Origin: a virus
Length of the DNA: 64,000 nt
Virus record (IMG/VR): IMGVR_UViG_3300032311_000675
Coordinates: 1-64,000 of that record
Strand: one strand, 5' to 3'
Below are positions 21,424 through 39,764 of this stretch, piece by piece. Position 1 is the first letter of the stretch. Every line of letters starts with the position of its first letter. The position numbers were made by a program, and so were the translations under genes. Below the pieces are notes generated by a model. That model was not told the DNA's origin, ran no database searches, and was given only the letters and a program-made list of their open reading frames with translations.

Positions 21424-21627
21424 TTATGACTTCTTCCACCAATCGGCGGAGTCCGTCGGTTTGATTTTTTTTGCTAACGTAGAAATTGTTTTTCTGGCCT
21501 CCCGAAGTCCAATGGTAAGGCGAACGCAGGGAGTTCCGTCTTTATCAAGAAAGCACTCAAGGAATCCCTCGTCGTGAAGGTAGGAGATCGCCGCTAGGGC
21601 TTCTTTTTCTCGGTTGTAGCTCACCAC
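21424..21627 (-). CDS. Hypothetical protein (67 aa)
   Basis: A GTG start at 21627 (or the next GTG codon) follows AGGAG on the minus strand. The protein is a compact alpha/beta chain (EALAAISYLHDEGFLECFL, then LREARKTISTLAKKI) that resembles a small winged-helix fold. It is the first gene downstream of the folded RNA element at 21641-21760, whose stem ends about five nt before this ribosome site. A regulatory role for the protein is speculative. Confidence 0.6.
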   Translation of the reverse strand: MVSYNREKEALAAISYLHDEGFLECFLDKDGTPCVRLTIGLREARKTISTLAKKIKPTDSADWWKKS

Positions 21628-21640
21628 TCAACTCCTAGCC

Positions 21641-21760
21641 CTAACAACAAGCGGGCGGGGGCCTCCCAAGATAACCGAGTCATGCCGACGTAAGGACCTA
21701 CGCCTTCAATTCCCGACTGAGGTGGTTGTCCACCTATCTTGGCCGCCCGCTTGGTGTTAG
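21641..21760 (-). ncRNA. Highly structured 120-nt RNA element (candidate leader or small RNA)
   Basis: The ends pair in an 18-position helix with one mismatch (21641-21658 with 21743-21760). Inside it are a 7-bp helix (CCAAGAT 21666-21672 with ATCTTGG 21736-21742), a perfect hairpin AGGTGG-TTGT-CCACCT (21720-21735), and an arm closed by AGTC/GACT (21678-21681 with 21715-21718) that carries a 6-bp stem at 21687-21704. The result is a closed multibranch fold. No T-run follows on either strand, so it is not a standard terminator. It fills the gap between the tail-fibre stop and the ribosome site of the 67-aa gene. It could be a 5' regulatory leader, a processed small RNA (a packaging-RNA-like molecule is conceivable) or a DNA-level site. 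The strand is inferred from the flanking genes. Confidence 0.55.
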
Positions 21761-21766
21761 CGCTCC

Positions 21767-23446
21767 TCATATGCTTGAGTAGCCTCCAGCGGTAATCAAA
21801 CTATTGTATCCCCAGTAAAACAGAGGCACTACTTCACTAAAACCGAAGTAGTGATTACCAGAATCCATTCCAGACCAGTCTGCTGGACTATCTGGATGTT
21901 TATACGTCCCACGGATCTCAATATTGTCAATTCGCCAGTTTCCCAATGTCGCCGCTGATGTGCCCCCATACCCAATTATTTGTAATTGCGTATATGTAGA
22001 AAGCGGTGCAATTCCTCCAGTATTAAAGGAAGCAACTTGCCAAGTGCTTGTGGTTGAAACTGCGGTAACGCCCGAAGTTAATCCGCTTGATGGCGATGAT
22101 AGACCAGAGTTAATGAACGTCTGTAGGTTTGTTGGACCAGTCGATGTTGAGCGCGTATAAAATTTGTATTCGGTAATTTTATGCGCTGCCGACGAAAAAT
22201 CTATTTGGAATCTTGTGCTTGTATTTATGTTGTATGCCCCTGCGACAGCAGATGCCAATAGGTTATATCCACCCTGCGGGCTTGCTGACGCAAAGCTAAG
22301 TAATGCTGGTGATGGTGAGCTTCCGTCATTGAATCTTTGAACTGATGGATATGCGTATGAACTGTAATCAATGGACGGCTCCATATATGTTGGCCTCGTG
22401 TTTGCCGTGTTGGAAACAGCGACAGATCCATCTGGCCCGTTAAATTGGTAAATCAGCTTTGCGGTTACTGGGTTCTCTACATAGTTAAAAAGTTTTGGTG
22501 CTGTAGATGTATCTGGGGGCCAAGTTGGTTCGCCATTCACTCTTCGTATTACGCTTCCAATCCTTCTTTGCTTTTCAGTTGTATCTTCAATAAACGATCT
22601 GCGTTGTTGCATTCCAAACATCTGCTCTGCAGGCGTTGGGCCGTTAGGGCTGTACACAGATCTGTAGACCTTCCCTATAGGGTCCGTGGTAAAGCTTAAT
22701 GCTATAAAATGCCAGCCCCTTTTAACTCCAAATGTTGCTGGAGAAAATACGGCTGTTTCATCCTCTGCGTTTACTGCAAGGTTTGTTCCAAGATTGCGAA
22801 CAAGGGTCATGTGCCCATTCGAAGTGGGCTGTGTAGATCCGTTGTAGTTGTCTCCAGCAAATAGAGCCGCTGATATGGTTCCAGAATAGTTCTTTACTGG
22901 AATCCTTAAGCTAAACTGAACTGACGCAGTATTTTTGATAAATATAGGAACGTAGTAGATTGGCCTTGATGTTGTTGACCATCCCTCGGTCCCGTCAAAA
23001 AGTGTCGGAGAAGATCCGTAGTTATAGAAGCTTTGCTCCGTTCCTCTTGCGCTAGTCATTGATCCAGAAGGCCAACCAAGCAGGTTTCTGTGAAATATAT
23101 TTGAGCTGTCGTCTTTGTAAGCTAGGTAGGCCGTGTCATAAATCCCATGGATATCGGATGTGTCTTGTCGGTGTGTTTCTAAAGCGTCCGATACGTTCGT
23201 TTGTGTGGCTAGGTTTGCCGTGTTTGCTATGCCGTGAACTGACGTAGTGGCAGAGTTATGTGTTGTGATTTTCCCGTCAACCTCTGCGTCTAGTGAGGCT
23301 TGGTCGGGAAGGTTGGCTGTAGGAACTTTAGCGTTTTCGTCCAGCGGGGCATAGCCGTTGGCTTGCCCCTTGTTATCCTTGGACTCGAAATTGCTTCCGC
23401 CCGCAGGCGTTATAAAGCCGTCCGTGTATGGAAGTTGTATTGCCAC
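21767..23446 (-). CDS. Tail fibre protein (559 aa)
   Basis: The N-terminal part carries the typical fibre phrase YAPLDENAKVPTANLPD followed by repeated H-x-I/V-HGI-x-NTANL units (residues about 30-115), as in trimeric fibre shafts. The remainder is Ser/Thr/Tyr/Asn-rich beta structure, with a likely carbohydrate-binding C-terminal domain ending near the DNIEIRGTYKHP segment. It should act in host recognition. A copy of the GCGACGCATA-type word lies 49 nt before the start at 23446, so this gene probably begins the tail-terminase transcript. Confidence 0.85.
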   Translation of the reverse strand: MAIQLPYTDGFITPAGGSNFESKDNKGQANGYAPLDENAKVPTANLPDQASLDAEVDGKITTHNSATTSVHGIANTANLATQTNVSDALETHRQDTSDIHGIYDTAYLAYKDDSSNIFHRNLLGWPSGSMTSARGTEQSFYNYGSSPTLFDGTEGWSTTSRPIYYVPIFIKNTASVQFSLRIPVKNYSGTISAALFAGDNYNGSTQPTSNGHMTLVRNLGTNLAVNAEDETAVFSPATFGVKRGWHFIALSFTTDPIGKVYRSVYSPNGPTPAEQMFGMQQRRSFIEDTTEKQRRIGSVIRRVNGEPTWPPDTSTAPKLFNYVENPVTAKLIYQFNGPDGSVAVSNTANTRPTYMEPSIDYSSYAYPSVQRFNDGSSPSPALLSFASASPQGGYNLLASAVAGAYNINTSTRFQIDFSSAAHKITEYKFYTRSTSTGPTNLQTFINSGLSSPSSGLTSGVTAVSTTSTWQVASFNTGGIAPLSTYTQLQIIGYGGTSAATLGNWRIDNIEIRGTYKHPDSPADWSGMDSGNHYFGFSEVVPLFYWGYNSLITAGGYSSI

Positions 23447-25268: not shown

Positions 25269-25907
25269 TTAATCATCTTGGCTTCTCGTTGTTGCTTTCT
25301 CCTTTAATACCTTTCGCCACAAACGCCAAGCTGTTCCTGGTGAAAGTCCAAGTGTTCGAGACAAGTGACGGACGCTTACCACCTCACCAGAATCAATCAC
25401 AAGCCTAGCGAGCTGGAGCTGTTCTTGGGTAACCGATGTAACCCGACCACAATGTACGCCTCGATCCATGGCGGCACGCATCCCAGCTTTGGTACGCTCA
25501 CGAATCAGATCACGCTCAAACTCTGCGACGGCCGCAAGCACATTGAGCTGTAACTTGGAGGCGGGGTTCATAGCTCCTCCTGTCGTGTCGATACCTTGGG
25601 ATGGGACACACAAACCGCAGTCGTAGGACAGAAGGTCGTTAATCAATCCAGCCAAGTGTTGGGTAGACCTACCAAGCCTATCAAGTTTCCAAGCCAAGAT
25701 AACTTGGATCTCCTTGTCCATCGCCGCCCGCATCATCTTGTCCAAGGCTGGGCGTTCTGTAACAGACCCAGATATTCCGTGATCCTCGTAAAAAACAGGA
25801 GTCCAACCCCGAGCCTTGCAGATCTGGGTAAGGTTATCCTTTTGAAGGTCGGTGTTCTGCTCGTCTGTCGATACTCTTAAATAGATACCAGCATTTGATG
25901 TAGTCAT
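25269..25907 (-). CDS. Serine recombinase (resolvase/invertase family)
   Basis: This small serine site-specific recombinase of 212 aa carries the nucleophile in YLRVSTDEQ (Ser13), the helix with AWKLDRLGRS, and a Gly-rich dimer loop followed by AEFERDLIRERTKAGM. A C-terminal helix-turn-helix (VSVRHLSRTLGLSPGTAWRLW) contacts DNA. The start at 25907 follows AGGGAT; upstream in-frame ATGs would read through a region with no ribosome site. GTGAC/GTCAC repeats in front of it may be its binding sites. It could serve resolution of replicated genomes, integration or inversion. Confidence 0.92.
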   Translation of the reverse strand: MTTSNAGIYLRVSTDEQNTDLQKDNLTQICKARGWTPVFYEDHGISGSVTERPALDKMMRAAMDKEIQVILAWKLDRLGRSTQHLAGLINDLLSYDCGLCVPSQGIDTTGGAMNPASKLQLNVLAAVAEFERDLIRERTKAGMRAAMDRGVHCGRVTSVTQEQLQLARLVIDSGEVVSVRHLSRTLGLSPGTAWRLWRKVLKEKATTRSQDD

Positions 25908-25988
25908 ATCCCTGTAGTCCTCTGGTGTTCCCATTTTTGCGTTCTGGGTGTCCGAATTAAAAAGGGGTACCCTTTCGGACAAGGTTTC

Positions 25989-38812: not shown

Positions 38813-39436
38813 ATGAGGTTCTATTTTATAGATCCTACCGATATCCCCGAAGGGACATCGGGGGTATGTCTAAGCCCTATAATTCATGGCTTTATGACTC
38901 TTTCGCACGGATTCGTACACGATTGTATGAAGAAATTAAGGTATTGTCCCTCTCGGAGCTTGGTTGATTCTCCGTGGGGAGCGTTACCAGTCGGGTTCAA
39001 AGCTGGAGCTGATTGCATCGTGTTTGAGAAGGATGGCCGTTGGTATGCAAAATCAGAGAGGGGAACTAACACCTATCCGCTCTTCCACGAGGCACAGGTA
39101 GAAACAGAGTTCCAGCCTGTCCTGTCGTGCTGGCGAGGCTCTAGGAAGGGCTGTGTAGACTGCTCCAGAGCCTGTCCAGACATCGACCCCGCAGTCAAAA
39201 GACGCCGAGAACTGCAAATGTCGCCCGCTGTCGTCGCTTCCAAGAGGGCTAAAAAAAGAGTCGAAAGATTTTTGTTGTCATACGAGCCCCATTTAGCAAT
39301 ATCTTCGGAATGTCTCTCCGAGAAAGTCTCCAATCTGATGAAAGTTTTGGGAGCAAAAGGTGGGAGAGTTAAGAGTGAAAAAAAGCGTCTCGCCGCAAAA
39401 GCAAACGCACTCAAACGATGGAGTGCCAACCGATAG
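38813..39436 (+). CDS. Hypothetical Cys-containing protein (207 aa)
   Basis: The start MRFYFIDPTDIPEGTSGVCL at 38813 is preferred to the ATG 38750 inside the hairpin tail, though no clear ribosome site precedes it. Mid-protein CWRGSRKGCVDCSRACPD has four Cys in 16 residues, a probable zinc or iron-sulfur site. The C-terminus is very basic with helices (GGRVKSEKKRLAAKANALKR). It may bind DNA. It overlaps the next gene by 62 nt in another frame. Confidence 0.62.
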   Translation: MRFYFIDPTDIPEGTSGVCLSPIIHGFMTLSHGFVHDCMKKLRYCPSRSLVDSPWGALPVGFKAGADCIVFEKDGRWYAKSERGTNTYPLFHEAQVETEFQPVLSCWRGSRKGCVDCSRACPDIDPAVKRRRELQMSPAVVASKRAKKRVERFLLSYEPHLAISSECLSEKVSNLMKVLGAKGGRVKSEKKRLAAKANALKRWSANR

Positions 39437-39764
39437 CTCTCAAATTCGATACAATATTTACTCTCCGCAGAGAGTCCCGCTTGGCATCGACATAGTATTA
39501 TCTGAGAGTGAAATCGCTCTCCCAACCGAAAAAAAATCCGAAGTAGAAAAAAAATTTTGGTCAAATGTATCGGTTGGCACTCGCAACCCGTTGAAGGGAA
39601 CACTCGCTTCCCGACTCTCTCCACTCGTACTCGCTAAACGCCTCGGCTTCTCTCTCTGCCAAGTCTTCGAGCTTATCGAAGCTGGCTCAATTATTTGCCG
39701 TAACGGACTTATCCCTGCGGAGGAGGCCGAACGCCTTCTCCAACCCAAAATAGAAAAAGTATAG
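39375..39764 (+). CDS. Helix-turn-helix protein (129 aa)
   Basis: GTG 39375 with GGGAGAG upstream starts MKKSVSPQKQTHSNDGVP. The last third, LAKRLGFSLCQVFELIEAGS then GLIPAEEAERLL, is a MerR/excisionase-type helix-turn-helix. The first part is hydrophilic and disordered. It overlaps the end of the 207-aa gene and precedes the annealing-protein gene by 9 nt, so it may regulate the recombination set. Confidence 0.62.
   Translation: MKKSVSPQKQTHSNDGVPTDSSQIRYNIYSPQRVPLGIDIVLSESEIALPTEKKSEVEKKFWSNVSVGTRNPLKGTLASRLSPLVLAKRLGFSLCQVFELIEAGSIICRNGLIPAEEAERLLQPKIEKV
39421..39582. repeat. Perfect 15-bp inverted repeat spanning 162 bp
   Basis: GAGTGCCAACCGATA (39421-39435) recurs in inverted form as TATCGGTTGGCACTC (39568-39582). 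The left copy overlaps the TAG stop of the 207-aa gene and the right lies in the helix-turn-helix gene. The arms enclose 132 bp that hold further GAGAG/CTCTC pairs. It may be a recombination site or a long RNA stem. Confidence 0.8.

What the first reader, a model, noticed from the sequence alone, without database searches (positions are those of the whole stretch)
21641..21760. Strongly folded 120-nt RNA element with an 18-bp closing helix
Nested and branched helices (outer 17 of 18 pairs, 7-bp inner, 6-bp hairpin, second arm) fill the gap between two tail genes, with no terminator T-run. It matches no RNA I know. On the minus strand it ends about 5 nt before the ribosome site of the next gene. 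It could be a regulatory leader or a free packaging or effector RNA, since terminase lies 2 kb on.
Basis: partly seen in the sequence, partly recalled or inferred. Interest (0 to 1): 0.78.

Follow-up and report, generated by a model that had tools for sequence, protein, structure and literature searches.

The report
Folded RNA element trailing phage fibre gene
Right after the gene for a virus's host-gripping tail fibre sits a 128-base stretch that folds into an elaborate hairpin; the same hairpin, with different but still matching letters, follows the same fibre in another phage whose neighbouring genes differ, so the fold is real and travels with the fibre, but what it does is not known.

Summary
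Window 21641-21760 (really 21637-21764) is the longest inverted repeat in the window. On the minus (coding) strand it folds at -57.4 kcal/mol, z = -4.85. No Rfam family matches. A homologue was found in one other phage contig (L015), which differs in gene order and downstream genes. There the fold is stronger (-80 kcal/mol, z = -6.8). Its outer arms differ in sequence and length yet pair 18 of 18, and the 96-nt core keeps all 31 shared pairs despite 9 substitutions.

The element belongs to the upstream fibre gene. It is shared with L015 only as the 3' end of an exchanged block (fibre residues ~90-559 plus element). Sister phages with near-identical flanking genes carry other fibre tips and lack it.

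Best explanation, mostly inferred: a cis-acting intercistronic mRNA structure at the 3' end of the fibre cistron, protecting, processing or insulating that message, inherited with the fibre module. Only two independent alleles were found, so function remains open.

The parts
21637..21764 (-). whole structured element (extended)
   Evidence: inverted repeat, score 16, top of window; MFE/z of the inner 120 nt; homologue in L015 6455-6599
21743..21764 (-). P1 5' arm AGCGCTAACACCAAGCGGGCGG
   Evidence: 20/22 pairs with 21637-21658; L015 arm differs in sequence and length but pairs 18/18
21637..21658 (-). P1 3' arm CCGCCCGCTTGTTGTTAGGGCT
   Evidence: as above; similarity to L015 ends one base past this arm
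21659..21665 (-). one-sided 7-nt bulge GAGGCCC; AGGCCC could pair with the P5 loop (pseudoknot), with one U-A to A-U change in L015
   Evidence: such a complementarity arises by chance in about half of shuffles, so tentative
21735..21742 (-). P2 5' side CCAAGATA, pairs with 21666-21673 TATCTTGG
21721..21734 (-). P3 hairpin GGTGG-ACAA-CCACC
   Evidence: identical in L015
21675..21716 (-). P4/P5 arm with loop GGUCCU; P4 has one C-G to U-A double change, P5 one G-U to G-C change in L015
21621..21770 (-). 49-codon reading frame through the element (MRSANTKRAAKIGG...GLGVEW); its ATG overlaps the fibre stop and its TGA overlaps the gene B start
   Evidence: L015 has a 47-aa homologue; codon usage borderline; no family match; AlphaFold pLDDT 64, pTM 0.24
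21767..23446 (-). tail-fibre-like protein, 559 aa; residues ~90-559 shared with L015 (91% aa)
21636..23180 (-). exchanged block: fibre C-terminal region plus element
   Evidence: L015 matches only this stretch (90.5% nt); sister phages match on both sides of it but not inside
21424..21624 (-). gene B (downstream small gene, MSYNREKEAL...), conserved in sister phages with ATG start

Best explanation
A conserved RNA structure in the intercistronic region directly 3' of the receptor-binding fibre gene, transcribed with it in the sense (minus-strand) direction and inherited as the 3' end of the exchangeable fibre module. Most likely it acts in cis on the polycistronic late mRNA: the long P1/P2 stem just past the fibre stop codon serves as a processing or protection site (RNase III-type cleavage or a block to 3'-to-5' decay) and as an insulator, so that the fibre message and the following gene are expressed separately. 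Shown: the fold, its conservation, its travel with the fibre, its absence from sister phages with other fibres. Inferred: transcription, sense-strand action, processing or insulation. Open: whether the 49-codon frame is translated and gives translational coupling through the structure.
For: Fold z -4.85 and -6.78 in the L015 homologue. P1 arms diverged in sequence and length between the two phages but remain complementary (20/22 and 18/18). The core has 9 substitutions in 96 nt, none breaking the shared 31-pair structure, with one double compensatory pair and two G-U/G-C exchanges. The sense strand folds better than antisense in both alleles, and the single-sided changes in shared pairs give G-U, never A-C, in the sense strand. 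The element sits 2 nt after the fibre stop and follows the same fibre with different downstream genes. Block boundaries. The gene B Shine-Dalgarno lies outside the helix and is mostly unpaired in the prediction. Analogy: transcribed ~107-127 bp palindromic elements (NEMIS, ERIC) in mRNAs have been linked to RNase III processing or altered mRNA stability (PMC2229807).
Against: Only two independent alleles, so covariation is thin: with the window's own MFE structure, which L015 breaks at two pairs, the joint chance value is about 0.04, and the shuffle control is uninformative with two rows. Palindromes can be kept perfect by template-switch correction without selection. No transcript data. The host is unknown, so no RNase III can be named. 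An open reading frame runs through the element, so ribosomes may cross it.
Confidence: 0.4

Rival explanations
1. A small protein gene. The 49-codon frame is translated by coupling (ATGA with the fibre stop, GTGA with gene B), like the small ORFs that other fibre alleles have in the same slot, and encodes a small fibre-associated protein; the fold is secondary or serves the coupling.
For: Open frame over the whole element in both alleles, starting at the same ATGA overlap. Sister phages have 50-80 codon ORFs between fibre and gene B (L010, L011, L014; sequences), and gene B starts are usually overlapped by or close to the preceding stop. The frame has the best codon score of six.
Against: Codon score falls at the 18th percentile of real genes and 81st of non-coding, so inconclusive. 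Eight core differences fall at codon positions 2,2,3,3,2,3,2,2, not a typical coding pattern. N- and C-terminal residues are not conserved although the DNA arms stay complementary; an 8-nt insertion changes the frame at the 3' end in L015. No family match; poor AlphaFold model.
Confidence: 0.25
2. A palindromic mobile-element relic (MITE/ERIC/NEMIS/RPE-like DNA) that inserted once behind an ancestral fibre gene and has since been carried along, with or without a later function.
For: Size, long terminal inverted repeat and read-through ORF resemble these elements as described in PMC2229807. Similarity between alleles ends at the helix base on the 3' side.
Against: Single copy in the record. No exact match to its P3 21-mer in ~85,000 prokaryote species genomes, none in phage or plasmid collections. 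No target-site duplication or empty site seen.
Confidence: 0.15
3. A DNA recombination site: the hairpin/cruciform at the 3' edge of the fibre block is cut or recognised to exchange fibre modules (integron attC-like, or used by the serine recombinase encoded 1.8 kb upstream).
For: It marks one edge of the exchanged block. Gene-stop-palindrome order with CTAAC...GTTAG ends recalls attC, and attC sites occur in phages (PMC9892861). A DNA-invertase-family gene at 25269-25982 is present.
Against: The other edge lies inside the fibre gene with no such site. R-box consensus not fully met; no unpaired central spacer or extrahelical bases; no second site seen. The recombinase is 97-100% identical in sister phages that lack the element.
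Confidence: 0.12
4. An independent small RNA (packaging, effector or regulatory) made from this region.
For: Compact three-way-junction fold with a possible pseudoknot.
Against: No sigma-70-type promoter-like site on the coding strand in the ~830 bases scanned upstream and no terminator at its end; other promoter types are not covered. Not retained by sister phages. No Rfam match.
Confidence: 0.08

Closest known systems
ERIC / NEMIS (Correia) / Rickettsia palindromic elements (reviewed in PMC2229807)
   Same: 100-155 bp, long terminal inverted repeat, stem-loop when transcribed between genes, open frames through the element; some affect mRNA processing or stability
   Different: single copy here, no family in searched genomes, tied to one fibre module, branched core with conserved loops
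T7-type intercistronic RNase III sites (from general knowledge)
   Same: position between late genes of a polycistronic phage message; long stem with internal asymmetry
   Different: much longer and branched; no processing data; the phage is not T7-like
Integron attC sites, including phage CALINs (PMC9892861)
   Same: palindrome directly after a stop codon, CTAAC...GTTAG ends, at the edge of an exchanged segment
   Different: no unpaired central spacer, no extrahelical bases, R-box consensus off at the outer positions, no second site seen, conserved branched core
phi29-type pRNA (Rfam Phage_pRNA)
   Same: about 120 nt, closing helix plus two arms
   Different: no Rfam match; ordinary large terminase; sister phages with the same terminase lack it
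Shared receptor-binding modules between distantly related phages (PMC10579305)
   Same: fibre tip plus the next small locus moves as a block between phages of different backbone
   Different: there the passenger is a chaperone gene; here a structured element with only a 49-codon frame

Membership tests
Any Rfam family (incl. pRNA, ribozymes, riboswitches) | covariance-model score at gathering threshold | tested here: not met
   no hit at gathering on the whole window; only chance-level E>=0.28 hits on the element and its homologue
Intrinsic terminator | G+C-rich stem followed by T-run | tested here: not met
   none at the element on either strand
MITE / ERIC / NEMIS | terminal inverted repeats, about 100-155 bp | tested here: met
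   22-nt arms, 128 bp
MITE / ERIC / NEMIS | multiple dispersed copies in host or related genomes | tested here: not met
   single copy; no match in GTDB species genomes to a 21-mer, phages or plasmids; the host itself is unknown
Integron attC | R'' RYYYAAC and R' GTTRRRY | tested here: not met
   window CGCTAAC / GTTAGGG, L015 CCTTAAC / GTTAGGG: AAC and GTT present, outer positions off (sequences)
Integron attC | unpaired central spacer and extrahelical bases in the folded strand | tested here: not met
   helix continuous except single mismatches in the window, fully paired in L015
Integron attC (CALIN) | second attC-like site within 3 kb | tested here: inconclusive
   no other comparable palindrome near it; no attC-specific model was available here
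RNase III processing site | about two turns of double-stranded RNA between cistrons | tested here: met
   20/22 bp P1 plus 8-bp P2, as predicted folds
RNase III processing site | cleavage by RNase III | not testable with these tools
   needs RNA from infected cells; host unknown
Protein-coding small gene | codon usage and substitution pattern of a coding sequence | tested here: inconclusive

The most novel reading that the evidence does not exclude
A new class of structured nucleic-acid element that is a functional part of exchangeable phage receptor-binding modules: a fibre-linked RNA (or single-strand DNA) fold with a pseudoknotted three-way junction that controls fibre expression or marks the module for exchange.
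Probability: 0.12. Interest if true: 0.72.

Novelty: new variant of a known kind. Interest (0 to 1): 0.42.

Why it matters
Fibre tips decide which bacteria a phage infects and are known to move between phages. If a structured element regularly moves with them, either fibre dosage is controlled by an RNA that must come along, or the element helps the exchange. Either would be testable, and such elements would be missed by protein-based annotation.

Tried and rejected
A 17-base core pattern hit a third contig (L028), but it lies inside a ribonucleotide-reductase-like coding sequence with no matching palindrome: chance. One viral scan was wasted by a spacing error in my pattern. Scans with the fibre protein, the 49-aa peptide and core patterns found only the same two alleles. 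GTDB species genomes: nothing for an exact 21-mer or the fibre alignment. INPHARED phages: no fibre, element or peptide match (at chance level). A covariance model of the core found no further copies in 13 related or candidate records. AlphaFold of the 49-aa peptide was uninformative. The pseudoknot is kept as tentative only. A whole-window shuffle scan timed out and was replaced by a GC-regressed scan.

Full report
OBSERVATION. The 120-nt stretch 21641-21760 folds on the minus strand to -57.4 kcal/mol against -38.8 +/- 3.8 for shuffles (z -4.85); the plus strand is weaker (-50.8, z -3.83). It is the best short-range inverted repeat in the window, and none of 25 first-order random windows matched it. 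Energy alone is less exceptional: other 120-nt windows deviate more from the GC expectation. Minus-strand anatomy: long P1, 7-nt one-sided bulge, 8-bp P2, three-way junction with hairpin P3 and an interrupted arm P4/P5. There is no terminator T-run and no nearby promoter-like site, and no Rfam match.

GENOMIC SETTING. The record is a 64.7-kb virus contig with an SU10-type portal and a Phage_capsid_3 capsid protein, hence probably a podophage. The element lies 2 nt after the stop codon of a 559-aa fibre-like protein (21767-23446) and just before the Shine-Dalgarno of gene B (start best placed at 21624). Sister phages share the flanking genes (fibre N-terminus, HNH, gene B, terminase 91-99% identical), but their fibre tips differ and the element is absent (covariance search of the full records).

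HOMOLOGUE. One contig with different gene order and downstream genes (L015; IMGVR_UViG_3300032266_000608) carries the same fibre C-terminal region (residues ~90-559, 91% aa) followed at the same distance by a homologous element. Similarity starts inside the fibre gene and stops one base past the P1 helix (GTTAGGGCTA), where different genes follow. So the element is the 3' end of an exchanged fibre block and its constant partner is the upstream gene. Exchange of receptor-binding modules between distant phages is known (PMC10579305). A third record (L012) carries the same allele as the window, 100% identical over the element, so it is not an independent witness.

IS THE FOLD CONSERVED? In L015 the element folds to -80 kcal/mol, z -6.78 (antisense z -4.78). 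The outer arms have other letters and are longer through insertions on both sides, yet pair 18 of 18. In the 96-nt core, 9 substitutions leave all 31 pairs of the shared structure intact: one C-G to U-A double change, two G-U/G-C exchanges, the rest in loops, plus one U-A to A-U change in a possible loop-bulge pseudoknot. L015 prefers a slightly different inner pairing by 1 kcal/mol. Statistically this is modest, because there are only two alleles: simulated chance is 0.0015 against the shared structure, which was chosen with knowledge of both, and about 0.04 against the window's own MFE. The pseudoknot complementarity alone is not significant. The arms are the stronger argument. Template-switch correction of palindromes is a non-selective alternative that I cannot exclude.

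AN OVERLOOKED READING FRAME. A 49-codon ORF spans the element, overlapping the fibre stop (ATGA) and the gene B start (GTGA); L015 has a 47-codon counterpart. Relatives often have a 50-80 codon ORF in this slot. Codon usage is borderline, core differences do not favour third positions, the ends of the peptide are not conserved, and there is no family match or confident model. Verdict: undecided, about one in four that it is the main function.

HOW IT MOST LIKELY WORKS. The element follows the fibre irrespective of the next gene, folds better in the sense strand, leaves the gene B ribosome site mostly free in the window and provides about two turns of double helix. I therefore favour a cis-acting intercistronic mRNA structure that protects, processes or insulates the fibre message (confidence 0.4). 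Transcription and processing are inferred, not shown. In L015 any ribosome site of the next gene would be inside P1, so coupling through the small frame is possible there.

COMPARISON. ERIC, NEMIS and Rickettsia palindromic elements share size, terminal repeats, read-through frames and, for some, effects on mRNA (PMC2229807), but they are multi-copy families; none was found here. attC sites share the gene-stop-palindrome order and occur in phages (PMC9892861), but the unpaired spacer, extrahelical bases (structural elements described in PMC6393395), full R-box consensus and a second site are missing. pRNA and terminators are excluded on tested features. I therefore call it a new variant of structured intercistronic or palindromic elements, not a member of a named family.

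SCORE. Real, conserved and linked to a mobile host-range module, but only two independent alleles and no function shown: interest 0.42.

Noticed in passing
window 28.1-37.3 kb, minus strand (e.g. 36842, 35544, 34741, 33819, 30012, 29322, 28184): At least eight minus-strand starts share an extended leader, roughly AACACCAAAGGACTCCAnnnTATGAA, with ATG at a fixed distance (12 nt) from GGACTCC. It may be an extended ribosome site or operator common to an early-gene block.
   Followed up: partly
window 39421-39582: Second unusual palindrome: perfect 15-bp inverted repeat 132 nt apart, fold z about -5.4 on both strands, at the junction of two plus-strand genes; only partly kept in relatives, with one paired change and some breaks.
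   Followed up: partly
window 25269-25982: Serine recombinase of the DNA-invertase type on the minus strand, about 1.8 kb upstream of the fibre gene, nearly identical in sister phages.
   Followed up: partly
window 21424-21627: Gene B starts in relatives are usually overlapped by, or within a few bases of, the stop of whatever small ORF or fibre precedes them, although the preceding sequence is completely different each time: a fixed downstream edge for fibre-module exchange.
   Followed up: no
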